Positions 454 through 13,900 are shown, counted from the stretch's first letter. The stretch: DNA of 64,000 nucleotides from an uncultured Bacteroidales bacterium (GCA_903837605.1 CAILVF010000001.1:62001-126000), one strand, 5' to 3'. Translations and numbers: made by a program. The notes: generated by a model not told the origin, from the letters alone.

Positions 454-1469
454 TTTTTAAACCTGGAAGGTTTTAGCTGGGAGAATTTCTTTTTTCTCAG
501 GATGAAATAATCAAATACAAGGCTTCCCTTGTAGATATTTCTGACCGATCCCTGTTTTATTGATTTTCGTTTTTGCCTGGTTTTTGAAAGTGAGCGGTAA
601 AAACTGAAATGGGCCCTGGCTACAGCCCAGAAATCTTTGAAACCTGCCTGGACAAGAAATTTCATGGCGGCAACGCCGTCAAGCAGGAGCCGTACCATAA
701 AAACCCTGATAAGCCAGGATTCCGGCAGGTTCTTGTAAAGCAGTATGAAGTTATTCCTGAAATTGAGATAAGTCTTTCTCCATGAGATTTTCGGCAATGT
801 TCCACCACCTATGTGGAAAACAGTGGAGTCGGGACAATACATTATTTTGTATCCGGCGTTGTTCATCCTCCAGCAAAAATCAATTTCTTCCATATGGGCA
901 AAAAAATCCTCATCAAATCCGCCCAGTTCATGGTAAAGCTTTGATCTCACGAATAAGCAGGCTCCGGAGGCCCAGAAAATCTCGTGAACATCGTCGTATT
1001 GGCCGTGATCTTCCTCGATCTGAAGAAACATCCTGCCGCGGCAGAAGGGATACCCGTATTTGTCGATGAACCCACCGGCTGCACCGGCATATTCAAATTT
1101 CTTTGGCTCAAGATAGGACCTGATCTTGGGCTGGCATGCCCCTATCATTTCATCCTGGTCCATAATCTCTATAACCGGTTTTATCCAATTTTCGGTGACT
1201 TCAATATCTGAATTCAGAAGGATATAGTATTCCGCATCAACCTGGTTCAATGCAAGATTGTAACCACGGGCAAAACCGCCGTTTTCGGGATTGCTTATAA
1301 TTCTGATCTGCGGGAAGTTGTTTTCCAGGAAGCTGAGTGAGTCGTCGGTTGAAGCATTGTCTGCAACAATGACCCCGGTATCCGGTTCAATATGCTGCAT
1401 CAAAGCCGGAAGGAATTTCTCCAGAAATTTTTTCCCGTTCCAGTTAAGTATTACTACCGCGACTCGCAC
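450..1469 (-). CDS. glycosyltransferase family 2
   Basis: A GT-A fold glycosyltransferase of 339 residues, similar to rhamnosyltransferase-like (WbbL-type) enzymes that add sugars to surface polysaccharides. The N-terminus VAVVILNWNGKK, the DNASTDDS segment (37-44), the NSD metal-binding region (86-88) and the later GGFDEDFFAHMEEIDF stretch are typical family 2 features. No clear membrane segment is seen, so it probably acts at the cytoplasmic face. The start is a GTG at 1469 that places the conserved first strand at the N-terminus. A TATTTTTG box lies upstream on the minus strand. The acceptor and sugar cannot be told from the sequence. Confidence 0.9.
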   Translation of the reverse strand: MRVAVVILNWNGKKFLEKFLPALMQHIEPDTGVIVADNASTDDSLSFLENNFPQIRIISNPENGGFARGYNLALNQVDAEYYILLNSDIEVTENWIKPVIEIMDQDEMIGACQPKIRSYLEPKKFEYAGAAGGFIDKYGYPFCRGRMFLQIEEDHGQYDDVHEIFWASGACLFVRSKLYHELGGFDEDFFAHMEEIDFCWRMNNAGYKIMYCPDSTVFHIGGGTLPKISWRKTYLNFRNNFILLYKNLPESWLIRVFMVRLLLDGVAAMKFLVQAGFKDFWAVARAHFSFYRSLSKTRQKRKSIKQGSVRNIYKGSLVFDYFILRKKKFSQLKPSRFKN

Positions 1470-1503
1470 TCTGATAATGAAAAATAGTGTTCCAATTAAG
1501 GCC

Positions 1504-1511
1504 CAAAAATA
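1504..1511 (-). promoter_or_regulatory. -7 promoter box of the GT2 gene
   Basis: The minus strand reads TATTTTTG, a match to TAnnTTTG, about 35 bases before the GTG start at 1469. No clear TTG was found at the -33 position. Confidence 0.4.
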
Positions 1512-1555
1512 AGAATTAATCCTGAGCGGAAGAAAGAAATGACCTGCTTTGGCAA

Positions 1556-3040
1556 TTACTTACCAACATTGGTGGTGGGCAGATCCCAGGCATCTTCGGA
1601 GTAGTCACCCCAAACGCTTACTACCTGCGATTCACCGATGTCGACAGGGGAGTTCATTTTATTTCTTAAATCAACTTTCCATTTCGGATCATACTGCTCA
1701 CCGATGGCGTCGGAATGCAGCAGGATGAAATCGGCAGTCACCATATCAGGGGAATAAAAAACAAACCTTTTATTTCTCTGGCTGTTGTTCAGGGTATAAT
1801 ATTGCCATATTTCATATGGATAAGTATTCGGTTCTGCGTAATGGCCTTCCCTCGCATTTGGCGGACCATATTGAAGGAATACACGGCCGCGGTCGGTCTG
1901 GTAGCCTTTCTTTATTTTTGTAGCGAAATTGGCCTGGGCGGTGTTCACCTGGTTTTTGTATCCCAGCCATGCTTTTTCGGGTTCAGTTGCATTTCTTTGC
2001 TGCCAGAAGCTGAAAAAATATTTTTGCAGGGTAGGGAGATCTGATTTTTTCAGCTGGTATTGAATGAAATCCTTTTCGTATCCGGTTGAAACCGGGTAAG
2101 CACAACTGATAAACTCCCTGAGGGAGTCGGCATTAGTGATCTTCTCGGCAAAAGTTCCCTGGATATCGGTGGATGCAATCTGTGTGATTGAGTAAGTAGC
2201 TCTCGGGTTTGTCCTCTGGAAAAATACCCGCTTTGAAAGCAGCACTTCATTGCCGGCATTCCTTGCTTCTATAACAAGATTGTAATTTCCGGTGGCAAGA
2301 TCCTTGATATTGACTTCGGCAAGCAGTACATTGACAGCTTTGGGACTTTCTTTTTTTGCCTTGGCAAATTCGTTCAGCTTAAGGTTGTTTTCAAAACATT
2401 CGATATAATAGGAGAGAAGGAACATCTGTCCTTCGGGCAAAGCTTTATCAAGGCCGTACAGTTCAGTATAGAAACCCAGTTTGGCGTCTTCTTCGTTATA
2501 AAAATTGTAAATGCCGGGAACAAGGTCATAGCCACTCTTGGAGAGAACCGTCGATTTATCGGTCCTGGTGTAACTTTTAATCAATTCAACGCTCGACATG
2601 GAAGGTTTGTCAGCAGGAAAATCCACAGTAATTTTCTGCATATAAGGCATGGCCTGGGCCGTTTTATTTTTATCTGAAAGCTGGATTTCGAAATTATACG
2701 TCCCGTTGGCCAACTGAAATCTCTGAAGGTCTAAAAACTGGAAGTTCATGTGAGCAGTATCAGCAACATCCTTGCTGTTCAGTTCGTATTTTTTATAAGC
2801 TTTGATGTTATTATTATCCTTGAATGTCATGAGTACATTCACGGTGGCTTTATATTTGCCATTCTCCTGTTTAACCCATTTCACGCTGTTTCCGGCAATA
2901 CTCAGATATGTTTCCACATATGGACCTTCGGGGGAATTGAAAGTCGCGTAGGTAAGATATGCCCATAGATTTCTTGCCGAAGCAGATGGCCCTCCTAAAA
3001 TGAAACAGGCAAGGAACATCAGAAGTATGCTCTTTTTCAT
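1556..3040 (-). CDS. GWxTD domain-containing exported protein
   Basis: A 494-residue protein with an N-terminal signal peptide (about 1-22, MKKSILLMFLACFILGG start). The N-terminal two thirds look like beta-sandwich domains. The C-terminal region, with RVFLQYGPPN and PYEIWQYY, carries the hallmarks of the GWxTD domain family, which is found almost only in Bacteroidota and relatives and has no firmly assigned function. The family's namesake motif appears diverged here (AWLGYKNQ region near residue 355). The gene stands alone, with its own promoter at 3103-3133. It is likely periplasmic or outer-membrane associated, but this is inferred only from the signal peptide. Confidence 0.85.
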   Translation of the reverse strand: MKKSILLMFLACFILGGPSASARNLWAYLTYATFNSPEGPYVETYLSIAGNSVKWVKQENGKYKATVNVLMTFKDNNNIKAYKKYELNSKDVADTAHMNFQFLDLQRFQLANGTYNFEIQLSDKNKTAQAMPYMQKITVDFPADKPSMSSVELIKSYTRTDKSTVLSKSGYDLVPGIYNFYNEEDAKLGFYTELYGLDKALPEGQMFLLSYYIECFENNLKLNEFAKAKKESPKAVNVLLAEVNIKDLATGNYNLVIEARNAGNEVLLSKRVFFQRTNPRATYSITQIASTDIQGTFAEKITNADSLREFISCAYPVSTGYEKDFIQYQLKKSDLPTLQKYFFSFWQQRNATEPEKAWLGYKNQVNTAQANFATKIKKGYQTDRGRVFLQYGPPNAREGHYAEPNTYPYEIWQYYTLNNSQRNKRFVFYSPDMVTADFILLHSDAIGEQYDPKWKVDLRNKMNSPVDIGESQVVSVWGDYSEDAWDLPTTNVGK

Positions 3041-3102
3041 AACACCAAGATTTATGTTTTTATAATATAATAATGTTTCCTGTTGAGGATAAAATCAATA
3101 TA

Positions 3103-3133
3103 CAAATATATTGAAAATACGCTGATTTGGCAA
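3103..3133 (-). promoter_or_regulatory. promoter of the GWxTD gene
   Basis: The minus strand carries TTG (3133-3131), 20 bases, then TATATTTG (3110-3103), matching the Bacteroidota TTG-N19..21-TAnnTTTG consensus. The leader to the ATG at 3040 would be about 60 bases. Confidence 0.6.
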
Positions 3134-3198
3134 GAAAATTCTGTCAAGAGGGTAATCTGTCGGGTAAAGCACCTGATCAAGAATGTAAGAAGGCATTC

Positions 3199-3228
3199 TT
3201 GCCGGTTTGGAAAATTGTTGTAATTTTG
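3199..3228 (+). promoter_or_regulatory. promoter of tRNA-Ser(TGA)
   Basis: TTG at 3199-3201, a 19-base spacer and TAATTTTG at 3221-3228. Transcription would begin within a few bases of the mature tRNA 5' end at 3234. Confidence 0.6.
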
Positions 3229-3233
3229 CCCCC

Positions 3234-3320
3234 GGAGAGATGGCAGAGTGGTCGATTGCGGCGGTCTTGAAAACCGTTGAGGTGCAAGCCTCCGGGGGTT
3301 CGAATCCCTCTCTCTCCGCA
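3234..3320 (+). tRNA. tRNA-Ser (anticodon TGA)
   Basis: The acceptor arm GGAGAGA (3234-3240) pairs with TCTCTCC (3311-3317), followed by the discriminator G3318. The anticodon arm GCGGT-CTTGAAA-ACCGT places TGA at the anticodon. A long variable arm is present, as expected for a class II tRNA-Ser, and the T loop reads GTTCGAATC. CCA is not fully encoded. The last 14 bases of its 3' end (from 3306) are repeated exactly at 10873-10886, showing that it is the integration site of the following element; the gene remains intact. Confidence 0.97.
3306..3319 (+). repeat. attL core, 14-bp direct repeat
   Basis: CCCTCTCTCTCCGC, the 3' end of tRNA-Ser(TGA), is repeated exactly at 10873-10886 next to the integrase gene. 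It marks the left end of the integrated element. Confidence 0.85.
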
Positions 3321-3655
3321 CTTAATATCCGTAAATGCAATATTGTCAAGCGTTTACGGATTTTTCATTCCTCCCTATTCCATATTTGCACACACTTTCA
3401 TTCAGGCGTTAATTTGGTAGGTGCCTGATTAAGGGTCCCATTTTTTACGGCAAACCTCCCAAAGGTGAGATTTAACAGCCCTTTCCGTGGTACTTCATCC
3501 AGCACCCCCTAATTTTATTAAATTTTGATAAATTATTATTAACGATAGAATTGTCTATAACAAGTTTTAGAGTGAACGAATTTTTGTTATATTATTGCAA
3601 CCGAAATGGCTTGAGGTGGAAATAAAATACTTTTTTTTCAGAAACAGCAATACCC
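3321..3655. other. left end of element, no gene
   Basis: No convincing coding sequence. The stretch holds the hairpin at 3327-3366 and an AT-rich region, and ends at the promoter of the left operon. In a circular form it would be the attP arm on the Xis side, where integrase and Xis sites would be expected; none could be defined by eye. Confidence 0.5.
3327..3366 (+). terminator. terminator-like hairpin after tRNA-Ser
   Basis: ATCCGTAAA (3327-3335) and TTTACGGAT (3353-3361) form a 9-bp stem, followed by a short T run. It lies inside the element and may replace the chromosomal terminator that integration pushed to 10895-10934. Confidence 0.5.
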
Positions 3656-3687
3656 TTGACATTCCCTGGACTCTAAACGTACTTTTG
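3656..3687 (+). promoter_or_regulatory. promoter of the element's left operon
   Basis: TTGAC at 3656-3660 and TACTTTTG at 3680-3687, with 21 bases between TTG and TA, fit the Bacteroidota consensus. It would drive the HTH, nuclease-like and primase-helicase genes. Confidence 0.6.
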
Positions 3688-3732
3688 TTGCTCAATAAAT
3701 TTTAAATGTATTGTTTAACTAAAATTATCAAA

Positions 3733-3909
3733 ATGGAAGAGTTGAAGACTAAGGCTGAGATTAAGCAGATTTTGCATATTAAATCTGACACTACTATCTG
3801 GAGGCTTGAAAGGGCTGGTGTGCTCCCCTCATATCAGGCAGGGAGGCGAAAACTATATAAGGTATCAGAGGTGTTAGAAGCCTTAAAGGTCCCGCTGAAG
3901 GCGGCTTAA
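3733..3909 (+). CDS. AlpA/Xis-like helix-turn-helix protein
   Basis: A 58-residue DNA-binding protein starting MEELKTKAEIKQILHI. The pattern of an N-terminal helix-turn-helix, a short wing containing AGRRKLYKVSEV and a basic C-terminal tail fits the MerR-like HTH_17/AlpA family used as excisionases and regulators by small integrative elements. An ATG at 3706 is also in frame, but the ATG at 3733 is preceded by A-rich sequence and begins just before the domain, so it is preferred. It is the first gene of the left operon, which suits a role in excision and in controlling the replication genes. The function is inferred from family and position. Confidence 0.75.
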   Translation: MEELKTKAEIKQILHIKSDTTIWRLERAGVLPSYQAGRRKLYKVSEVLEALKVPLKAA

Positions 3910-3924
3910 TAAGATTGCCCGACA

Positions 3925-4221
3925 ATGACAGGAGAGGCATATACACTCCAACAGCGTATTATCCGCTTTTTAGAATCGGAGGGACACCAGGTTGAACTCC
4001 CTTACCGGGATGTGGCCCCCCGGGTGTGGAATTACCCCGACGGCGTTGCCAACATAGCGGCTACCATTGGGGGTAAGTCAGTAAAAATTCATGTTAAGGG
4101 CGATTATAATCAGGGACCGTCCCAGAAAGACTACCAACAGAAAGTTGAAAATGCCGGGGGTATATATACGATAGTCACTGGCTGGGAGGAGTTTCACAAT
4201 TGGTACACTAATACTTTTTAA
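3925..4221 (+). CDS. VRR-NUC-like small protein, degenerate active site
   Basis: A 98-residue protein whose second half (GVANIAATIGG, VKIHVKG, SQKDYQQ, AGGIYTIV, F..WY) follows the pattern of VRR-NUC nucleases of the PD-(D/E)xK fold that are common in Bacteroidota phages and integrative elements. Where active members have Asp in ADI and Glu in IEVK, this protein has Asn43 and His56; Lys58 and Gln67 are retained. If the alignment is right, metal-dependent cleavage is probably lost. The gene sits between the HTH gene and a second copy of the same fold, 3 bp from the latter. The family assignment is made from remembered motifs without a search. Confidence 0.6.
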   Translation: MTGEAYTLQQRIIRFLESEGHQVELPYRDVAPRVWNYPDGVANIAATIGGKSVKIHVKGDYNQGPSQKDYQQKVENAGGIYTIVTGWEEFHNWYTNTF

Positions 4222-4223
4222 TC

Positions 4224-4514
4224 ATGGTTAAAAGCACAAAAAGTCACAGAAAGGGGGCACCCCCCGTTGAGCGTTATTCCGAAATGCCTAATCCCGGCAC
4301 CCCCGGGCTTACAGACAAGGACACAAACACCCTTACTAAATATATAATCCGTTTTTTTCATCGGACGGGGCGGCGGGCAAACATAAGCACGGTCATTGAG
4401 GGAGGGTTAATAAAATTCGAGGTGAGATTAGGACAAGTAAACAAGGTGAGACCGCAAGGAGTGTCACGGGCAGGTGTGAGTAGAAGGGGGCTGGTATATC
4501 ATGACCGACCTTAA
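4224..4514 (+). CDS. second VRR-NUC-like protein, probably frameshifted
   Basis: A 96-residue reading frame starting two bases after the previous stop. LTKYIIRFFHRTGRRA resembles the N-terminus of VRR-NUC proteins, and ANISTVIEGGLIKFEVRLG aligns without gaps to the core of the upstream gene; it keeps Glu66 but has Asn in place of the usual Asp and Arg68 in place of Lys. After about residue 85 the frame looks wrong. In the +1 frame from 4480, VEGGWYIMTDLNQFYTR, ending at a TAA at 4531-4533, resembles the normal C-terminus of the family. It therefore looks like a decaying paralogue. Its product may be nonfunctional. Confidence 0.5.
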   Translation: MVKSTKSHRKGAPPVERYSEMPNPGTPGLTDKDTNTLTKYIIRFFHRTGRRANISTVIEGGLIKFEVRLGQVNKVRPQGVSRAGVSRRGLVYHDRP

Positions 4515-4591
4515 CCAGTTTTACACCCGTTAAATGAAGAGTTTCTGATAAAAAATAATGGCAACCGGGTCAGGGTTGCCAAAAAATTCAA

Positions 4592-6403
4592 ATGATGCAA
4601 GAACAAGGCAAAGATACAACATTAGAGCCAGTAAACCAAGCCCTTTCGAGGGAAGGTGACGGTAAATTTTCCTATTTTAACCCCCCAATAACGAACACAA
4701 TCCCTACCCCCGGCCCCCTTACCCTGAGCGCTGTTTTCGATATAATTACCGGAAACGAGCTAAAGGAAATAACTAAAGAGTTACGGGGGCTCCCCACAGA
4801 GGAGGAGCAAAATAAGTTTAAACTAGAACGCTGCCCGTCTGTTTGCTTTGCCGGGGTCTTTACATACAGGAATGCAGAATCATTACAAACCAGGTCGGGG
4901 TTGTTTATGTTGGACATAGACAAGCTACCAGACACCGAAAGCGCAAAACAAAAAATATTAATGACCTCCTCACCCGCTTTAATGTATGTTACACCTAAGG
5001 GGCACGGATTGAAAGTTATTTACCGTATTGACACACTTAAGGCTGATCATGGCACCTGGTTTAAAACCTTACAAACCTACTTTGATAATAAATTAGGGAT
5101 ACCGATTGACGCTGCTTGCAAGAGTGTTGCCTGGGCCAGCCTCTTGTGTCATGACGAAGAGGCACATTTTGACCCTGATGCACCGATCCTGGGAGAAGCT
5201 TTCTTGAGGGAATACCCTATTATTAGGAATGATATAATAAAAACAAAAGGGGCGGGCTCGAAGTTTGAGCCCGGGAATAGGAATAATCATGTTTTTCGGA
5301 AAGCCTCTCAGTTGCGGGGGGCCGGGATTACAAAAGAAGAAGCCCTGATTTTTTTGGGATCATTCGAACAGCCAGGTTTTGATAGGGCGGAAATCCAGCG
5401 GGCTATTAATTCAGCATATAAGGGTAATGAACCCTCTGCGTTTGATGATCTAGACGAATTATTATCCTCTGCTAAAATTGATCCATTAGCTGACATTTCA
5501 CAGCCGCCCGTTATTTTACGGTATGATAGTGTACCGTTTGCAACCCTGGGAAATTTCAGCCTTGTCACAGGAAAGCCTAAGGGCAGAAAAACAACGTTTT
5601 TAACTGCCCTGGTTGCTGCTGTATGTGATCATTCTCCATTAGACAAGCTTACGGGGAGCCTGGGCGGGCGGGACGTTCTATATATAGACACTGAACAATC
5701 ACAATTTCACGCAGCTAGGACAATTAAGCGTATTTGTCGATTAATCGAAAAGGACAATCCGGCAAACTTTGAGGCTTACGGATTACGGAGGTTTACACCG
5801 GCCCAACGGTTTGCAGTAATTGAACACAAGATTATGAAAATGGATAACCTGGGGCTGGTTATCATAGACGGTGTACGGGACTTATTGACAATTGGGATAA
5901 ATGATGAAGCCGGAGCGACCGCCCTATGTTCAAAAGTACTCAAATGGAGTTATGACAAGGAGATTCATATCTGTATGGTCCTACATCAAAACAAGGGGGA
6001 CGATAATGCCAGGGGGCACATAGGCACCGAGCTAGTGAATAAGGCTGAAACGGTTTTAAGTGTAGCTAAAGACCTTAAGAACAAAGCCGTTTCGATAGTA
6101 ACACCGGTATACACCCGGGATTTGGATTTTGAGCCGTTTGCCTTTACTATGGCCCCCGACGGATTACCCTATACCCATATACTTGAAACGCACACGGTTA
6201 AAGATGCGATCCATGAAGGCATGACAAAGGCTCTCCCTGGAACGAAGAGCCTGGGGTATAGAGAATTGGGGCAAGCGTATAAGGAGAAAGCAGGGGTATC
6301 CCTGGCAACAGCAAACCGGCATATTAAGCAAGCAATGAAAGCCGGGATAATTACTTGCTCAAATAAGGAGTATAAATTAAACACACCCCAGGAAAATGAG
6401 TAG
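4592..6403 (+). CDS. primase-helicase replication protein
   Basis: A 603-residue protein with three parts. Residues 40-210 resemble the VirE-N/BT4734 type primase-like domain, with LDID (D108, D110) and KGHG (136-139) as likely catalytic motifs. Residues 225-280 look like a small helical primase C-terminal region. Residues 310-500 form a RecA-like ATPase of the AAA_25/RepA class with P-loop GKPKGRKT (327-334), in which Arg replaces the usual second Gly, and Walker B LVIIDG (422-427). A winged helix follows (550-600). It would unwind and prime the element's DNA. The iteron array begins 15 bp after its stop, which fits an initiator acting at a neighbouring origin. Confidence 0.82.
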   Translation: MMQEQGKDTTLEPVNQALSREGDGKFSYFNPPITNTIPTPGPLTLSAVFDIITGNELKEITKELRGLPTEEEQNKFKLERCPSVCFAGVFTYRNAESLQTRSGLFMLDIDKLPDTESAKQKILMTSSPALMYVTPKGHGLKVIYRIDTLKADHGTWFKTLQTYFDNKLGIPIDAACKSVAWASLLCHDEEAHFDPDAPILGEAFLREYPIIRNDIIKTKGAGSKFEPGNRNNHVFRKASQLRGAGITKEEALIFLGSFEQPGFDRAEIQRAINSAYKGNEPSAFDDLDELLSSAKIDPLADISQPPVILRYDSVPFATLGNFSLVTGKPKGRKTTFLTALVAAVCDHSPLDKLTGSLGGRDVLYIDTEQSQFHAARTIKRICRLIEKDNPANFEAYGLRRFTPAQRFAVIEHKIMKMDNLGLVIIDGVRDLLTIGINDEAGATALCSKVLKWSYDKEIHICMVLHQNKGDDNARGHIGTELVNKAETVLSVAKDLKNKAVSIVTPVYTRDLDFEPFAFTMAPDGLPYTHILETHTVKDAIHEGMTKALPGTKSLGYRELGQAYKEKAGVSLATANRHIKQAMKAGIITCSNKEYKLNTPQENE

Positions 6404-6418
6404 CTTTTTTAATTTTAT

Positions 6419-6531
6419 ACTATCACAATATACTATCACTATCATCCCGTATCTATATATACGGGAATGATAGTTGATAGTAATGATAGTAATGATAGTA
6501 ATGATAGCATAATGATAGTAAAAATGATAGT
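6419..6531. repeat. iteron array AATGATAGT with central hairpin
   Basis: Three inverted copies (ACTATCA at 6419, 6432 and 6438) lie left of a hairpin, CCCGTAT (6446-6452) with ATACGGG (6459-6465) around a CTATAT loop. To the right lie direct AATGATAGT units at 6466, 6482, 6491, 6500 (last base C), 6511 and 6523, plus a shortened TGATAGT at 6475. Copies at 6482-6508 are head to tail with a 9-bp period. This is the geometry of binding sites for a replication initiator. Confidence 0.85.
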
Positions 6532-6650
6532 AACCCCCTTTTTCGGTGCCTTGGTGCTACAATTCCGGCTACACTTCGAGCAATGAAAAGCCGCAAACAA
6601 TTGAATAACACGCAAATACACACCGTTATAGCGGTCTCGTCAGGACTTAT

Positions 6651-6707
6651 TAGCCCTTTTTCTACAATGGATCAGGGCTAGTACGGGAGGCCTTGCCTCA
6701 TCCGTAC
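6651..6707. repeat. two adjacent hairpins
   Basis: The first is TAGCCCT (6651-6657) with AGGGCTA (6674-6680). The second is GTACGG plus AGGC (6681-6691) with GCCT plus CCGTAC (6695-6707). They are directly adjacent. They could be a single-strand origin, a nick site or a recombination substrate; none of these can be shown from sequence alone. Confidence 0.55.
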
Positions 6708-6737
6708 CTCATCTCAGTAAAGACTAAACACACCCTG

Positions 6738-6938
6738 TTACTCATAAAAGAAAAAAGTTGCTGCTTTAGATGCAGCGTATGCCGCCTTCTTAAGTACCTG
6801 AATTTCTTTTTCAAGGTTAATATCGGGTGTTTTCTCATATTTCAACTGCAATTCAGAGCAGTGCCTTGAAAGCACAAAGGCTAATGTGCACATTTCGGCA
6901 TTAGTCAAAGACAGCCTGAGTTTTTTGATATCTTCCAT
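6738..6938 (-). CDS. hypothetical protein, 66 aa
   Basis: A small, mainly helical protein, not recognised. It starts MEDIKKLRLSLTNAEMC, with an alternating hydrophobic pattern that would suit a helical bundle or a dimer, and ends in an alanine-rich helix and FFFYE. Its start lies 11 bp after the stop of the amidohydrolase-like gene on the same strand, so the two are probably cotranscribed. No signal peptide or membrane segment is visible. It could be an element-specific accessory or regulatory protein, but there is no evidence for a function. Confidence 0.6.
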   Translation of the reverse strand: MEDIKKLRLSLTNAEMCTLAFVLSRHCSELQLKYEKTPDINLEKEIQVLKKAAYAASKAATFFFYE

Positions 6939-6949
6939 AGGCCACTAGT

Positions 6950-7702
6950 TTAAATGATAACACACCGTAATTCAAAAAGGAGGTCGGTAAGGATTTGCTT
7001 TACACTTAAATATCTCAGGCTCTTAATGTTTGTCCCCTCTTCCAGGTATAATTTGCGATTAACCTCAATCATCATTGACATAACTGCTGGGTCTTTGTGA
7101 TAGAACTCTAGCGGGACAATAGTACCCGAGTAAGGGGTATCAATACCTAATGAAAGCCCGTACTTGTTGCAAAACCGCTGGGATATTTCAACCAGGACAG
7201 CCGGGGTGTGAAATATATCAGTTCCTATGTTGATATCCGGTCTACCTGGGTTTTGGTCAAGGTCACGTATCAGTGGGGTATCAGGGAATGAATGACAGTC
7301 AATAATAAAAGCCCTCCCCTGGTCCCTAAGCTGGTCGGCAATGGCCTGGGTTAACCTCTTATGGTGGGGGGTATAGTAAGATTCTATTATCCCTGAACGT
7401 AATACAGGCGAGACAGACCGCAGCGGCGAGCCGTCGTCACAGTGCGTGTAAAGAACGCCCATACCCTTCTTAGACATGTCCTCCATCTCGTCACTAGCAA
7501 ACCTCTCTACGTCGCAGAAAACCCTGGAAAAAGCAGCCCTGACGCTAATGTTAGTACCCCCCTGGAACAGTTCATCCGTATACCAGTCTGTAAGCAGTAA
7601 TAATTCATTCTCTAACCTGGTATCGCTGGCAAGGTATCCCTCCCTGGAAGGGACGTTAGTTGAGGAGTGGGGAATATTTAAAATTAGAGGGGCCTGGATC
7701 AT
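6950..7702 (-). CDS. N-formylglutamate amidohydrolase-like protein
   Basis: A 250-residue protein of the N-formylglutamate amidohydrolase (FGase, HutG-type) family, zinc hydrolases that classically release formate from N-formylglutamate in histidine breakdown. IPHSS (10-14), CDVER (63-67), DCHSFPD (135-141), GTIVP (193-197) and EVNR (213-216) match the family's conserved points, so the metal site looks intact. The ATG at 7702 was chosen because the longer reading starts with TTG inside the repeats at 7765-7796. No other histidine-degradation gene is nearby; in a mobile element the substrate may be different, such as a peptide or cell-wall amide. It is apparently cytosolic. Confidence 0.85.
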   Translation of the reverse strand: MIQAPLILNIPHSSTNVPSREGYLASDTRLENELLLLTDWYTDELFQGGTNISVRAAFSRVFCDVERFASDEMEDMSKKGMGVLYTHCDDGSPLRSVSPVLRSGIIESYYTPHHKRLTQAIADQLRDQGRAFIIDCHSFPDTPLIRDLDQNPGRPDINIGTDIFHTPAVLVEISQRFCNKYGLSLGIDTPYSGTIVPLEFYHKDPAVMSMMIEVNRKLYLEEGTNIKSLRYLSVKQILTDLLFELRCVII

Positions 7703-7764
7703 TCTGGTACCTTGTGCGGGGAGCGTGTTAATGTATAGCCTTTTTTTACACTGTATGTAAAATG

Positions 7765-7873
7765 GAAATCGTTCCAAAATCGTTCCACTTTTTGGGGTCT
7801 ATTTTTGCGTAACTCGTTGTTTTGTAACCTTATCGTAAATAGAAATCGTTCCAAAATCGTTCCACTTTTTGGG
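7765..7873. repeat. two 32-bp direct repeats, each with two 11-bp-phased sites
   Basis: A 32-bp sequence is present exactly at 7765-7796 and 7842-7873, 77 bp apart. Each copy contains ATCGTTCCA twice with an 11-bp period, giving four sites on one helical face within each copy. The block lies just upstream of the amidohydrolase-like gene and downstream of the exported protein, so it may be an operator for the former or a second iteron group. Confidence 0.85.
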
Positions 7874-7912
7874 TTTTGCCGCCCCCTTTGAGGCCCTCCC
7901 ATACCAGGCAGG

Positions 7913-8644
7913 CTATTGTTTTATTACCGGGACCTGTTTGTCCTCAGCGATATTCAGGACGGCACCCTTAAAAGGCTCAAATGAATAAAAATCGTTCTCA
8001 AGGAAATCCTTAAACTGCTGGTCGTCGTTAAAGGATTTTAATGAGAATCTCTTATTAGGGTCCATTGCCTGGGGGTTTGGTACTTCGATCCTGACACCGT
8101 ATGAAACCCCGTTTTTAATTGGTAGCTCAACCCGGGGGCCTGTAATGTTGCCATGCCGGGACGGGTCAACGGACAGCCCCCGGCGTTCAATTGTTAACAC
8201 CCCTTGAGAATATATTTTATAAGTCATTCTCATGTGGTTTCTCATGGTAGCAACCAAATTTCCGTTAAAGTATATAGGGAACGGCTGGTTTTCATCCATG
8301 CCGTAATTATATACAACGTAAATCAGGGCGAAATCAGAGCTATCCCGGGACCTGGGCGGCCCTACCCTGGCTATTGAATCCATGCTTTTTGCCATTTCTT
8401 TTTCTTTATCCTTTTGAAGCACGTCAACAAAGCCGTTAGAATATTGGATTTTAACGATATCCGCTTTACTTATTTCATAAGCGGGACCATGGGGTATTTC
8501 AGCTTTTTTATATCTAACCTTATCCAGGGTTACTTCAATTACCTTACCCCGATAAACGTTTCGATCTGTTGTATAAATTAAATCCTGGGAGCGTCCTATA
8601 AAAGCAAACCCAACAAGAACACAAATTATCACAAACTTACTCAT
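7913..8644 (-). CDS. exported protein of unknown function
   Basis: A 243-residue protein starting MSKFVIICVLVGFAFIG, a clear signal peptide cleaved near RSQD. Residues of the mature N-terminus (RGKVIEVTLDKVRYKKA followed by an ISKADIVKIQYSNG stretch) resemble a small beta domain often found at the start of Bacteroidota exported proteins. The rest is not recognised and has no membrane segment after the signal. A second possible Met lies two codons upstream (8650). It is the only exported product of the element, so it may alter the host envelope, but that is inference. Confidence 0.72.
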   Translation of the reverse strand: MSKFVIICVLVGFAFIGRSQDLIYTTDRNVYRGKVIEVTLDKVRYKKAEIPHGPAYEISKADIVKIQYSNGFVDVLQKDKEKEMAKSMDSIARVGPPRSRDSSDFALIYVVYNYGMDENQPFPIYFNGNLVATMRNHMRMTYKIYSQGVLTIERRGLSVDPSRHGNITGPRVELPIKNGVSYGVRIEVPNPQAMDPNKRFSLKSFNDDQQFKDFLENDFYSFEPFKGAVLNIAEDKQVPVIKQ

Positions 8645-8741
8645 AACCATAACTTTACCTTTAGAACAAAGGGATTACACTCCTCTAAGTTACACCTTTT
8701 CTTAAATGTACCCAGCCCATTAGCGCCCGATAGGTTCCGGG

Positions 8742-9008
8742 TTAGTTTTTACAAGCTCTGTCCAGGGCGTCAGCCGCCGCATACTTTACAAGCATTGTGT
8801 TTTGGAGGTTCTTGACTTCATTTCTATACCCCGCTAGTTCATCCATTTGCCTAATTACTTGACATGAAAGGACGACATGGGTTTGCAATCGCTTAATTTC
8901 ATGTTCGTTTGTCACCCTGGCGGCCTCCAGTTCATGGATATACTCATGTAGGTCTTGGCGAGACCAGGTGTTAAATTTCGTGTCGGGGGTTTCTCTTTCT
9001 TTAGACAT
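8742..9008 (-). CDS. hypothetical coiled-coil protein, 88 aa
   Basis: A small charged protein, not recognised. From about residue 18 to 75 it shows heptad-like spacing of hydrophobic residues (LHEYIHELEAARV, EIKRLQTHVV, VKNLQNTMLV), suggesting a coiled coil or helical hairpin. There is no signal peptide. It lies between the integrase gene and the exported-protein gene on the same strand and may be part of the right-hand operon. A structural or DNA-binding accessory role would be a guess. Confidence 0.6.
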   Translation of the reverse strand: MSKERETPDTKFNTWSRQDLHEYIHELEAARVTNEHEIKRLQTHVVLSCQVIRQMDELAGYRNEVKNLQNTMLVKYAAADALDRACKN

Positions 9009-9351
9009 ATTTCAAGTTTTTAGTGTTAATGGTCACCTTAAGAACAATTGGACCCGGGATTGCCATGTCCTTATAATAGAGGAAAGGAGAGAGACAATAG
9101 CAAACGATTTTCGGGCAACATTTTTTTTCGTCATACCGGGGGGTGGTTCGCAGTTTCCGTTTTTCGTTTCGGTCCCACTTGTGATATTATGGCATTTACT
9201 GCAAACGCAGAGGGGTACCGCTCAAAACAGCGAATCAACCTGTGTCGGGAAATAGCCTTCATTTTAAGGGTTTTAACATGGGTAAAACATAGAACAGGTT
9301 ATTGTTATTTAAATTTAGTCTAAGAATTAGTAAATTGATCCGGAGGCAGGT
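9009..9351. other. intergenic stretch within the element
   Basis: About 340 bp between the integrase stop and the 88-aa gene. Short open frames exist on the plus strand but have no start context or recognisable content. No strong hairpin or promoter box was found by eye. Confidence 0.4.
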
Positions 9352-10707
9352 TCAGTTTTTTGCATGTTGTTTGAGGTTTTTTATGCTGAAAAGCTTCATG
9401 GCGTCTTTCTTCATTTCAAGGTTTACCTGGTAATACTGCTCCATCATGGAATGGTCGCTATGTGTGGTCATTCCCATTGTTATTTCAGACTTCACTCCCA
9501 GCCAAACATTCAAGCTTATAAAAGTCTTTCTCCCTGTGTGGGTCGAAATGAGCTTATATTTAGGGGTGACCGTTTCTTTTCTTTCATTCTTATAAAATTG
9601 CACCTTACTCACCATGTCTGTAACCCCTGCATCTTTAGCAAACGCCTTAACCGCTTCATTCATTTTCTGGTTTGAAATGCAGGGAAAGGCCATTTCCTGC
9701 TTCTTGGAATTGTAATTTGGGGTATTCTTATACTTCTCCAGGATCATGCGGCTAAACTCATTAAACGGGATAATTGCAGTATCTCCAGTTTTCAGCGTGA
9801 CACACTTAATTACCCCCTGGTGGTAATCAACATCTCCCTTTTTCAAGTTTGCAATGTCAGAGAACCTTAAGCCCGTTGCACAGGCAAGGATTAGATAGTC
9901 CTTTGCCCTTTTGTGCGATTCAGAGACCGGTGAATAGTTATACATGAGCAAAAACTCCCTTATGGTTAGTGCAATGATGTTTATGTCCGCCTGTTGTTTC
10001 TTCTTGCCGGTTTCAAGTTTGCAGTACTTCCTAAAATCAGGGTTCTTGTTGTACCCCTTTTCCTCTGCCCAAATAAGGAATGATTTAATAAAGCTAAAAT
10101 TCTTCTTTATGTATGGGTTGTAAAATTTTGCGACCTCACCTTCAGGTGTGGTCTTTTTGGCATCAAAATAGAAGTCGGCCAATTTCTTAAAGAAAACCTC
10201 GTCCATTAGGTCAAAGGCAATGCCGGTATGACATTTCCTTCCAAACTCCATTAGGTGAGATTTAAGGGTAGTAAACTTTGTTGTTGTTCCCTTGGCCCAT
10301 TTTGTGCCTCCCTCCTTAATATACTCGTCAAAATACTGAAAAAAGTTCCCGGCTGACTGCTGGTTCTTTTTCAAGCGGCCCGAAATATAGGCTGGGCTTA
10401 ACCGCTCGCCTTTATCCCAGGCATCGTAGCAAACTCCCTCAAGCTCTGACTTGAGCTTACTCAGGGCCTTGTTTAGCCTCGTGGCGTGGGTGTGACTAGC
10501 TACTATCCTTTGCCCCTGCTGGTTCCAAAGGTCGGCATCTATCCTAATACCTGTAAATGACTTGTAGCGGCCCCCATATGAAACGGAAAAGATTATAGGT
10601 ACGTCCACTGTAATTACTTCGCCGTCCTTGCCTTTACGTCGCTCAAGATAGAACTTTACCCGGGGTGTGCGGACGGCCTTACGTTGGTTCTTAAAGAGTG
10701 CTACCAT
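9352..10707 (-). CDS. tyrosine recombinase integrase
   Basis: A 451-residue site-specific recombinase that would catalyse integration and excision at the tRNA-Ser site. The N-terminal arm-binding region (about 15-110) and SAM-like core-binding domain (120-215) precede the catalytic domain. The catalytic residues are visible: Arg281 in TGLRFSD, His390 and Arg393 in HTGR, His416 in THSD and the nucleophile Tyr425 or Tyr426 in EQYYQV. It resembles integrases of Bacteroidota integrative elements. The gene starts 179 bp from attR, reads inward and has its own promoter at 10730-10760. Nothing suggests truncation. Confidence 0.95.
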   Translation of the reverse strand: MVALFKNQRKAVRTPRVKFYLERRKGKDGEVITVDVPIIFSVSYGGRYKSFTGIRIDADLWNQQGQRIVASHTHATRLNKALSKLKSELEGVCYDAWDKGERLSPAYISGRLKKNQQSAGNFFQYFDEYIKEGGTKWAKGTTTKFTTLKSHLMEFGRKCHTGIAFDLMDEVFFKKLADFYFDAKKTTPEGEVAKFYNPYIKKNFSFIKSFLIWAEEKGYNKNPDFRKYCKLETGKKKQQADINIIALTIREFLLMYNYSPVSESHKRAKDYLILACATGLRFSDIANLKKGDVDYHQGVIKCVTLKTGDTAIIPFNEFSRMILEKYKNTPNYNSKKQEMAFPCISNQKMNEAVKAFAKDAGVTDMVSKVQFYKNERKETVTPKYKLISTHTGRKTFISLNVWLGVKSEITMGMTTHSDHSMMEQYYQVNLEMKKDAMKLFSIKNLKQHAKN

Positions 10708-10729
10708 ATTTCAAGTTTAAAATATCGCA

Positions 10730-10760
10730 CAAAGCTACACACATTTATAGGCAAAAACAA
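10730..10760 (-). promoter_or_regulatory. promoter of the integrase gene
   Basis: The minus strand has TTG (10760-10758), a 20-base spacer and TAGCTTTG (10737-10730). It fits the Bacteroidota consensus and gives a leader of about 20 bases to the ATG at 10707. Confidence 0.6.
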
Positions 10761-10872
10761 GTGAAAAATGATGAAGGTTGTTAACAAGTGGCAGTGTCCT
10801 AAACCCCCCGTCAATCCTGGTAAATGAAAGACGGTGAAAGCTTGTAACCCTTGACGGATTTGAAAATTGAGA

Positions 10873-10886
10873 CCCTCTCTCTCCGC
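10873..10886 (+). repeat. attR core, 14-bp direct repeat
   Basis: An exact copy of the tRNA-Ser(TGA) 3' end (3306-3319). It stands without the rest of a tRNA and marks the right boundary of the element. Confidence 0.85.
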
Positions 10887-10894
10887 CAGTCTTG

Positions 10895-10934
10895 AAAAAA
10901 ACCGCCTGAATTATTTGATTCAGGCGGTTTTTTT
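10895..10934. terminator. bidirectional terminator beside attR
   Basis: ACCGCCTGAA (10901-10910) and TTCAGGCGGT (10919-10928) form a 10-bp stem flanked by A7 and T7 runs. It can end the minus-strand T9SS gene, and before integration it was probably the terminator of tRNA-Ser(TGA). Confidence 0.85.
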
Positions 10935-10951: not shown

Positions 10952-13900
10952 CTACCTTGTGATAATTATTTTCTGAAGATAATCCTGCTGGATGCCTCCT
11001 GCAGTTATGGCTATTTTCAGATTATAAAGGCCTTCCGGCAGGTCTTTGATCTGCAGGGTGACTCTTGCATTCCCTTTCTCAACGTGTTGCTCAGGGATCA
11101 CTGTTACTTCCCTGCCCATCACGTCCAGCAGTTTTATTCGGCAGTCTGCTGCTGAATTCAGCTGAAGTTCTAATGTGACAAAATCCCGTGCAGGGTTAGG
11201 GTAGACTTTACAGGAGCTTACCAGGTCAGCATCAGTGATACTATTTGGTTTGATGGTAAGGCTTGTAAGCTCAGCAAGCTGGATTACTTCGCCCAGGTCA
11301 TCCGCCAGTTCTGATTCGAAATCAGGAGATAAATCTATGGATTGACAGTCTCTGAAAGCTTCTTTTGCCCTGAGCTTCAGTGTCAGCAGGGTTTCACCTT
11401 CATTAAGTCTCAAACCATTGATCTCCGACCAGGCTATGCGGACCTGTCCCGGAAGAATGTTATACACCGGTTCGCCCTGGCTGATCCGGACATCCAGCAC
11501 CTCGATTAAATCCTGAGGATAAGGGATTACCAGGGAAATGGCGCTGACTGTCATGTCGCTCCCTGCTTTTACCGGGAGTTCAAATACCTGGCCGGGTTTC
11601 ACTTTGATAACACCGGCATTTGTGATTTCAACATTCCGGGAAATCCATTTGCCGGTTGAAGGAATGTTTGAGCCGTTTACATCCCCGACACATAACCCAT
11701 AAAAATTCTGGGTTACAGCGGCCCCGTTTACAATGATGGTGTCTCCTCCGCCTGGTTTTGCAAACGTCCAGTTACCGCGGTCGAACGAATTATCGAGTCC
11801 CGAAAACCTGCGTTTTATCTTGATTGCATCCGTGGCATTGATGGAGTTGCTGAGGTTAACATCAGCTGCGAGAAGTCTCACCGGTTCAGTCAGGACTTCC
11901 AGGCCTGCAAAATGCCTCTGTACCTTGATGGCATCCGTGGCATTCACACTTGACCAGGGTTTGCTCGTCCTGGCAGAAACCGTATATATGCCATTTGGTT
12001 TGCAGGCAAAAGAGTAAGCGCCTGAAAGGGCCGTCCGGGTGGAGTCGATCCGGATACTATTTTGTTTAATTACCACCCATAATGAATCAAGAGGCGTGGC
12101 CGCAGTGTTATTATAGGTGAATGTTCCGCTCATTTGCCAGCCCGGAGCGTAATATACCAAACCATTACGGTAAAAAAATGCAGTCGGAATATCAGTCAAC
12201 GGGTTTCCTACAGAATCAGCATAGGCACAATCCTGGCCGGAGTTGTCGGTGTTATTCCATATCAGGTTAGTTTCTCCGGTGTTATGAGTAAACTGGATAT
12301 CCAGCACTTTGCTTCCATAGGCAAGTGTAACAGGTGTCGGATCAGACCAGTTGATCATTACCTTGCTCAATGTTGGTGAAACGGATGTGTTTGTGACAAC
12401 CAACCCTGCCAATGCCGTGTTAATATTGGCCGGTCCTGTATAAGTCAGTGCAACAGGATTATAATCAAGGCGCAGCGAAAGACCTCTGATTTTCCTGAAT
12501 CTATCAGCTTTGACCGGGACAAATACTGTTGTATAATCGTTGATGTTGATTGTGTCGGTATATGTAAAGGGGGCGTGTTTTAATGCATTCAGAATTGTAA
12601 AAGCAGCATCGCTCACATCGAAGGCATTTGCATTTATTGTACTCGTCACTTTCACCTTGCAGGGTGTCGAAAGCGCAGTAGGAGCAGGGTTCGGAACAGT
12701 CCAGGAATAAGAGCCGGGAGTGGCAGGGGTGCTGGCGACAACCGAAGTCCAGTTTGTCCCATTATCAATAGAGTATTCAATTTTCACGTTGCTTACAGTG
12801 CCGGCATTCCAGGTTATCGGATGAACTGTGCCGCTAAGCCATATCTCGCCTCCGTTAGGTGAGATCATCTGGATGGGGTTTGCTGTAGTAAAACTTTGCT
12901 GGTCTCCGTATGAAGTCCCACCGGTATTGATTGCATATGCTCTGACATAATACAAAGTACTCCCCGATAACCCGGTCAGATTGCTGACAAATGCTCCTGT
13001 TCCGCCACCATCTGTAGTATGGCTGTCTGCAATTGTCGGGCTGGATGCTGTACTCCAGCAAACTCCTCTTGATGTTACCATTGAGCCGCCTCCAATGGCG
13101 ATGGTCCCACCACAAGTTGATGCAGTTGTAGTTATACTGCTAATTGTTGCGGTTGTCAAAGAAGGAGTGGTTACAAAAGATAGTTCATTGCCGTATGAAA
13201 TTCCGTTTGAATTCCCTGAATAGGCCTTCAAATAATACAAAGTATTCGATGAAAGACCGGTCAGATTACTTATAAATACTCCTGTTCCATTACCATTGAC
13301 GGTATGATTGCCGCTTATTGACGGACCAGGGCTTGTGCCCCAGCAAACGCCGCGGATTAACACATTGCACCCCCCGTCGGAAGTTACATTTCCCCCTGAT
13401 GTTGCCAGGGTTGATGCGATGTTTGACGCGGCGGATGTCGTAACTGTTGGGGCTGTCGTCCCTCCATTGGTGCTTTTAATGCAGCGCAAGGGGAACCCAC
13501 CCGATTTAGGGTAATTGGTCATATAACTGGCCGTAGATGTAAAATACAACAGATTGCCTGCATTACCAGCGGTAGTCTGGATGCTGCTCCAGTACATCCC
13601 CTTGACACCACGGTCGAAGAGAGTTCCATTGTTCATGTTAAGATCCCCTGCGGCATGGAACTTTAATGGGGAGTTCCAAGGCCCGTTCCAATCGGACCAG
13701 TTACCGCTTGCATCAATATTGGTTAATTCAGTATTGGTTGGAATGCGCCATCCGCATCCAAGCTCAAGTGCACAGGGGTCGTTGGCAGCTTCCCAGTCAA
13801 GGTTTTCACTGATAGAATATATCCAGGCAGTATTGGGTGTTCTGGTAGTCCCGTCATTCTTGTATCCCTGTTTGCGATTAAATTGCCAGTACCAGCCTGC

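What the first reader, a model, noticed from the sequence alone, without database searches (positions are those of the whole stretch)
3306..10886. A 7.6-kb tRNA-Ser-integrated element with replication genes but no visible transfer or packaging genes
Seen directly: an exact 14-bp repeat of the tRNA 3' end (3306-3319 and 10873-10886), an integrase at the right end, an HTH/Xis-like gene, a primase-helicase and an iteron array. Known: int, AlpA-like and primase-replicase genes are the core of phage-inducible islands and small integrative elements. Inference: this may be an undescribed satellite-like element of Bacteroidota, possibly spread by a helper phage or conjugative element.
Basis: partly seen in the sequence, partly recalled or inferred. 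Interest (0 to 1): 0.8.

Follow-up and report, generated by a model that had tools for sequence, protein, structure and literature searches.

The report
Minimal tRNA-integrated satellite-like element in Bacteroidota
A 7.6-kb piece of mobile DNA sits in a tRNA gene of an uncultured Bacteroidota bacterium; it can insert, excise and probably copy itself but has no genes for moving between cells, and its replication genes and relatives point to phage particles, not conjugation, as its likely vehicle.

Summary
A perfect 14-bp repeat of the tRNA-Ser(UGA) 3' end bounds 3306-10886, with an intact tyrosine integrase, an AlpA/Xis-like HTH gene, a PrimPol-helicase fusion and iterons inside; no relaxase, terminase or capsid gene was found. 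It is a mobile insertion: the closest relative (flanks 88% identical) has the empty site, and another same-genus genome carries a 6.5-kb sibling in the same tRNA with a 62%-identical integrase but a different replicase. A same-family genome has an 8.0-kb analogue in tRNA-Arg (51-bp repeat). The helicase domain falls in a clade separate from the relaxase-bearing NBU/Tn4555-type elements. The clade includes two prophages, and eight of its twelve members carry an iteron array within 200 bp downstream of the helicase gene (0 of 24 in the conjugative lineage). None of 43 genomes of the host family has a PF03432 relaxase, while the host genome has three phage terminase/head modules. I judge it an excisable, self-replicating minimal island most likely moved by a helper phage; packaging itself is not shown and no cos/pac match was found. 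It fits the known class of 'cryptic integrated elements' with PrimPol genes: a new variant, not a new kind.

The parts
3234..3319 (+). tRNA-Ser(UGA), integration target
   Evidence: ARAGORN; Rfam RF00005; matched in the family genomes
3306..3319 (+). attL core, CCCTCTCTCTCCGC
   Evidence: exact repeat
3324..3364 (+). inverted repeat plus T run just inside the left end; probable replacement terminator for the tRNA gene
   Evidence: I23; inference
3706..3909 (+). 67-aa AlpA/Xis-like HTH protein (likely start 3733)
   Evidence: PF12728 E=6e-5 (below curated cut-off), phrog_66 excisionase E=2e-4; sibling copy 53% identical passes PF12728
3925..4221 (+). 98-aa VRR-NUC-like protein, related to phage/prophage nucleases next to PrimPol genes; the ExK motif reads HVK
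   Evidence: pairwise z of 22-25 to L113/L114 proteins; 47% to an IMG/VR phage-contig protein
4224..4514 (+). 96-aa ORF, weak similarity to the same nuclease family, possibly a degenerate copy
   Evidence: pairwise z of 3-5; weak
4592..6403 (+). 603-aa primase-helicase: BT4734-like_N PrimPol (DID motif at residue 108) + PriCT_1 + RepA-like AAA_25 + C-terminal wHTH-like
6405..6540 (.). candidate replication origin: iterons (AATGATAGT) in both orientations around a hairpin, immediately 3' of the helicase gene
   Evidence: hairpin z = -5.9; same position in 8 of 12 clade members
6738..6938 (-). 66-aa ORF, no relatives
6950..7702 (-). N-formylglutamate amidohydrolase-like cargo (FGase); the ORF is open from 7777
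   Evidence: PF05013 E=6e-43; PDB 2q7s E=1e-13; a Vibrio phage carries a 33% relative
7766..7864 (-). two 22-bp perfect repeats TGGAACGATTTTGGAACGATTT (7766-7787, 7843-7864), candidate operators or second iteron set
7913..8650 (-). 245-aa protein with N-terminal signal-like sequence, cargo; 43% relative in the sibling element, 44% in a family chromosome
8742..9008 (-). 88-aa ORF, no relatives; small ORF in the same place in the sibling
9352..10707 (-). tyrosine integrase, 451 aa, intact motifs (ATGLRFSD, HTGR, THSDH, YY)
10873..10886 (+). attR core, CCCTCTCTCTCCGC
10895..10934 (.). perfect 17-bp inverted repeat with T run, just outside attR; host terminator beyond the tRNA
   Evidence: I8

Best explanation
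A minimal integrative element of phage-related lineage. Its integrase recombines a core in the 3' end of tRNA-Ser(UGA), restoring the tRNA 3' end (shown by att anatomy and empty sites). With the AlpA/Xis-like protein it excises as a circle (inferred from gene content). The PrimPol-helicase then starts replication at the iteron-hairpin origin at 6405-6540 (inferred, supported by comparison). It has no transfer machinery; the most likely vehicle is the particle of a helper phage that packages the replicated DNA (inferred). FGase and the secreted 245-aa protein are cargo. Rough likelihood of the steps: mobile tRNA element 0.95; replication from this origin 0.75; phage particle as vehicle 0.5-0.55.
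For: att repeat and tRNA. Empty site in L064 with 88% identical flanks, and in L065, L066, L068. Sibling L063 with 16-bp repeat, 6.5 kb, integrase 62% aa identical and 64% nt while the host flank is 78% nt, so separate acquisitions. L087: 8.04-kb tRNA-Arg element bounded by a 51-bp repeat with the same primase/helicase gene set. AAA tree: window in a 12-row clade (96/86) without relaxase, including prophages L139 (terS, tape measure) and L142. VRR-NUC next to primase/AAA in phage-type contigs and a prophage-like element. Iterons 3' of the AAA gene in 8/12 clade members, 4/107 others, 49/2122 control windows; without the window 7/11 vs 4/107, p=2e-6. No PF03432 relaxase in 43 family genomes, none in the own genome, no TIGR03783 there, but three terminase/head modules.
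Against: No cos/pac or other stretch is shared with the three phage head modules above control level. No TerS-like gene or capsid-redirecting gene. No near relative in viral contigs or phage records; only domain-level relatives. PF04466 terminase was found in only 9 of 43 family genomes, not in sibling host G782 nor in G792; lytic or unrecorded helpers remain possible. The VRR-NUC-like gene has lost its catalytic glutamate. Excision and replication are not observed.
Confidence: 0.55

Rival explanations
1. Degenerate prophage or cryptic remnant: a temperate phage in tRNA-Ser lost its virion genes and only int and replication genes remain, now largely immobile.
For: Replication module is of phage type; nuclease catalytic residue lost and 4224-4514 looks degenerate.
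Against: att repeat is exact; int, HTH and primase ORFs are intact; a 6.5-kb sibling in the same site and an 8.0-kb analogue elsewhere also lack virion genes with different replicases or integrases, so small size is a repeated state; no virion gene relics were found.
Confidence: 0.17
2. Conjugation hitcher (iOriT): it carries an oriT without relaxase and is mobilised by an ICE or plasmid.
For: The RepA-like AAA domain is 43% identical to that of the Tn4555-type element in Bacteroides finegoldii and Phocaeicola; hitchers with only an oriT are known (PMC11389934).
Against: Helicase clade is separate from the TOPRIM/MOB lineage; no PF03432 relaxase in any of 43 family genomes; no TIGR03783 in the own genome. 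Other relaxase families were not searched, and oriT cannot be recognised here.
Confidence: 0.13
3. Integrative plasmid-like element without a dedicated vehicle, spreading by transformation, vesicles or generalised transduction.
For: Iteron origin and PrimPol are plasmid-like; Kazlauskas et al. list 'cryptic integrated MGE' lacking conjugation or phage genes (PMC5862659).
Against: Does not explain the association of the module with phages and prophages.
Confidence: 0.12

Closest known systems
Cryptic integrated MGEs encoding PrimPol-type primases (class iii of Kazlauskas et al. 2018, PMC5862659)
   Same: tyrosine integrase, direct repeats, tRNA gene target, PrimPol-type primase fused to PriCT and a RepA-like helicase, no conjugation or phage genes
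   Different: primase N-domain is BT4734-like (PF08800), supergroup membership not tested; a Bacteroidota lineage with a sibling that has swapped its replicase and an iteron array behind the helicase
PICMI (Vibrionaceae satellites of virulent phages, PMC10803314)
   Same: 6-8 kb, int, AlpA-like, primase, no packaging or capsid-remodelling genes, direct repeats
   Different: target is tRNA-Ser not fis; primase lacks DUF3987/DUF5906; no known helper; FGase cargo
NBU/Tn4555-type mobilizable elements of Bacteroidales
   Same: tyrosine integrase, HTH, homologous RepA-like AAA protein
   Different: they pair the AAA protein with a Toprim primase, MobC and a relaxase; these are absent here, and the AAA domains form separate clades
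tmRNA islands of Pseudomonas (I55 and kin, PMC12595487)
   Same: tyrosine integrase, direct repeats, AlpA in many, no autonomous transfer genes; I55 is shown to be moved by a jumbo phage
   Different: under 20 kb to over 70 kb, tmRNA target, defence cargo, other core genes
PICI / SaPI
   Same: int, HTH, primase-replicase with origin nearby (origin placement from general knowledge)
   Different: no TerS, packaging-interference or capsid-morphogenesis genes found

Membership tests
Cryptic integrated MGE with PrimPol-type primase (Kazlauskas class iii) | integrated in tRNA or other gene, flanked by direct repeats, with integrase | tested here: met
Cryptic integrated MGE with PrimPol-type primase (Kazlauskas class iii) | PrimPol/AEP-type primase | tested here: met
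   PF08800 2e-22; PADLOC PrimPol 5e-24; NCBIfam PrimPol_Db 1e-10, below its cut-off; PrimPol-PV1 supergroup assignment not tested
Cryptic integrated MGE with PrimPol-type primase (Kazlauskas class iii) | no homologues of conjugation or phage structural genes | tested here: met
PICMI | integrase PF00589 | tested here: met
PICMI | AlpA (PF05930 or PF12728) | tested here: inconclusive
   PF12728 E=6e-5, 23.7 bits against cut-off 27; sibling copy 38 bits
PICMI | primase with DUF3987 and DUF5906 | tested here: not met
PICMI | integration downstream of fis | tested here: not met
   tRNA-Ser
PICMI | induction and packaging as a concatemer by a helper phage | not testable with these tools
   needs a cultured host and phage
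NBU/Tn4555-type IME | relaxase and MobC | tested here: not met
NBU/Tn4555-type IME | AAA helicase of the TOPRIM/MOB clade | tested here: not met
PICI | terminase small subunit or capsid/packaging interference genes | tested here: not met
   only weak, chance-level head/packaging PHROG hits (E 0.03-0.12) in the element
Phage satellite (any) | transfer in helper particles | not testable with these tools
   no reads or culture; no shared cos/pac stretch
Temperate phage | capsid, portal and terminase genes | tested here: not met

The most novel reading that the evidence does not exclude
A so far undescribed family of minimal phage satellites of Bacteroidota (6.5-8 kb, tRNA genes, tyrosine integrase + HTH + exchangeable replicase, iteron origin behind the helicase) that parasitises the compact head-module elements of roughly 18-25 kb present in several copies in the same genomes.
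Probability: 0.25. Interest if true: 0.75.

Novelty: new variant of a known kind. Interest (0 to 1): 0.5.

Why it matters
I found no phage-satellite paper covering Bacteroidota in the library searched (searches with Bacteroidota/Bacteroid terms gave none or only a general review). If these elements are packaged by phage, they would extend minimal satellites to a phylum dominant in gut and water, with a testable origin and host set. In a family with no detectable PF03432 relaxase, such elements may be the main non-phage route of tRNA-site gene gain.

Tried and rejected
1) Near relatives of the primase and integrase in IMG/VR: none; an alignment was needed to reach distant ones. 2) genome-contig scan with the integrase alignment gave only the sibling again, a Lake Pavin MAG. 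3) Shared cos/pac: a 16-17-base match (7517-7533, inside FGase) to the terS region of two head modules is no longer than a 17-base match to control DNA; rejected. 4) 'The human fecal Bacteriophage sp. records are packaged relatives': rejected, the 7.4-kb one is a relaxase-bearing mobilizable element. 5) Short direct-repeat search at tRNA-Gly, tmRNA and other PF08800 elements: no convincing second att. 6) AlphaFold of the sibling's 497-aa replicase without alignment: pLDDT 36, not used. 7) Could the insertion reach to 15.98 kb (1562-aa secreted protein)? Rejected: both att copies and int lie at 3306-10886; the secreted-protein gene is a separate lineage-specific difference at this site.

Full report
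CHECK OF THE OBSERVATION. The 14-bp sequence CCCTCTCTCTCCGC occurs exactly twice in the window, at the 3' end of tRNA-Ser(UGA) and at 10873-10886 (none expected in shuffles). Between them lie a HTH gene, a VRR-NUC-like gene, a 603-aa primase-helicase, iterons, an FGase-like gene, a signal-peptide protein, small ORFs and a 451-aa tyrosine integrase. No relaxase, terminase, portal or capsid gene was found with Pfam, PHROGs, NCBIfam or PADLOC. The integrase keeps the motifs ATGLRFSD, HTGR, THSDH and YY, and the primase keeps DID.

IT IS A MOBILE INSERTION. All 43 genomes of the host family match the query at E<=0.001, in nearly all cases in this tRNA region. G783 (L064), whose flanks are 88% identical, goes from the tRNA through a terminator to the MFS gene that lies at window 15980 onwards, with no element. 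L065, L066 and L068 of the same genus are also unoccupied by an integrase element. G782 (L063, a Lake Pavin MAG) has a different element in the same tRNA: cores end at 4304 and 10813, a 16-bp repeat, 6.5 kb. Its integrase is 62% identical (64% in DNA), below the 78% DNA identity of the host flank, its HTH 53%, its secreted cargo 43%. Its replication genes are unrelated: a 497-aa protein without Pfam match that has relatives in huge-phage contigs and in a tRNA-Ser(CGA) element of G786. So the site has been filled at least twice and the replication module is exchangeable.

THE WIDER GROUP. PF08800 primases were found in 13 of 43 family genomes, and many lie beside a tyrosine integrase, several next to a tRNA or tmRNA gene. 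L087 (G792) is bounded by a 51-bp repeat of tRNA-Arg and is 8.04 kb, with int, HTH, PF08800 primase, AAA helicase and no relaxase. L085 and L120 have the same gene set on contig ends.

PHAGE-TYPE OR CONJUGATION-TYPE. The helicase domain also occurs in NBU/Tn4555-type elements with Toprim primase, MobC and relaxase. A maximum-likelihood tree of 48 AAA domains puts the window in a 12-row clade (support 96/86) apart from that lineage. Contexts of the clade show no relaxase by BLAST, and a PF03432 search of the host genomes found hits in only two of them, on other contigs. Two clade members are prophages or prophage-like: L139 has a terminase small subunit and tape measure, L142 a VRR-NUC gene and a phage-type primase match. 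An IMG/VR contig (L157) has HTH, VRR-NUC (47% to the window's), AAA (51%) and PF08800 primase in a row. The nearest full-length fusions of both domains are in Flavobacterium phages of the Elemovirus group, 28% identical. Limits: the tree uses one domain, and some branches are long.

ORIGIN. Right behind the primase-helicase gene, 6405-6540 holds AATGATAGT iterons in both orientations around a hairpin, z = -5.9. Prompted by this, I looked at relatives and then tested 119 loci: an array starts within 200 bp 3' of the AAA gene in 8 of 12 clade members, 4 of 107 others and 49 of 2122 control windows. Without the window it is 7 of 11 against 4 of 107, p = 2e-6; none of 24 TOPRIM/MOB-type rows has one. 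The array thresholds were slightly changed, and the idea came from the data, so p-values are indicative. The repeat unit differs in each element, as expected of specific origins.

VEHICLE. No PF03432 relaxase is found in any of the 43 family genomes, and no TIGR03783 in the own genome, though other relaxase families were not searched. The own genome has three terminase/head modules. Terminase_3 occurs in only 9 of 43 family genomes and not in the hosts of the two best relatives, so a resident helper is not general. No DNA stretch shared with the head modules exceeds control. Phage packaging is therefore the best-supported but unproven vehicle.

COMPARISON WITH THE KNOWN. It works like PICMIs (PMC10803314) and like the jumbo-phage-moved tmRNA islands (PMC12595487), but fails the PICMI criteria of primase type and fis site. 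It meets the description of cryptic integrated MGEs lacking conjugation and phage genes (PMC5862659). Hence a new variant of a known kind.

Noticed in passing
G000 C37, C42, C68 (L153-L156, L122); G786 (L316, L318, L319), G787 (L320, L321), G737 (L322); IMG/VR L323-L327: A compact, strongly conserved phage head module (terL, scaffold/protease, capsid-like, portal, two small genes, 405-aa protein, endolysin) with 3 terminases in the own genome, 4 in G786 and 5 in G804, joined in some to differing int/HTH/replicase modules; no tail gene recognised. Could be a small podovirus or a capsid-forming satellite. Candidate helper.
   Followed up: partly
L067 / G786 C63 from 142.2 kb: Element beside tRNA-Ser(CGA): int, HTH, replicase related (29%) to the sibling L063 replicase, exonuclease, putative methyltransferase, then the head module on the same contig.
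   Followed up: partly
L110 (own genome C13), L108, L111 at tRNA-Gly(CCC); L109 at tmRNA; L112 at tRNA-Ser(GGA): Recurrent int + ~300-aa protein + PrimPol/VapE-like primase islands at these sites in the family; second att not found.
   Followed up: partly
window 10952-15640: 1562-aa secreted, probably T9SS-sorted protein between attR and the MFS gene, absent from G783; the spot between the two tRNA-Ser genes varies greatly in the family.
   Followed up: no
L103 (G570), 1451-10735: 9.3-kb tRNA-Ala element bounded by a 17-bp repeat, with a P4-type primase-like protein and a large tail-like protein; another satellite candidate.
   Followed up: no
L117 (G807), L118 (G819): PF08800 primases, in L117 beside CRISPR-type genes, resembling CRISPR-associated PrimPol, not mobile elements.
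   Followed up: no
window 6950-7702 and KU160494.1 (L148): FGase-like genes in a mobile element and in a Vibrio phage (33% identical); role in either is unknown.
   Followed up: no
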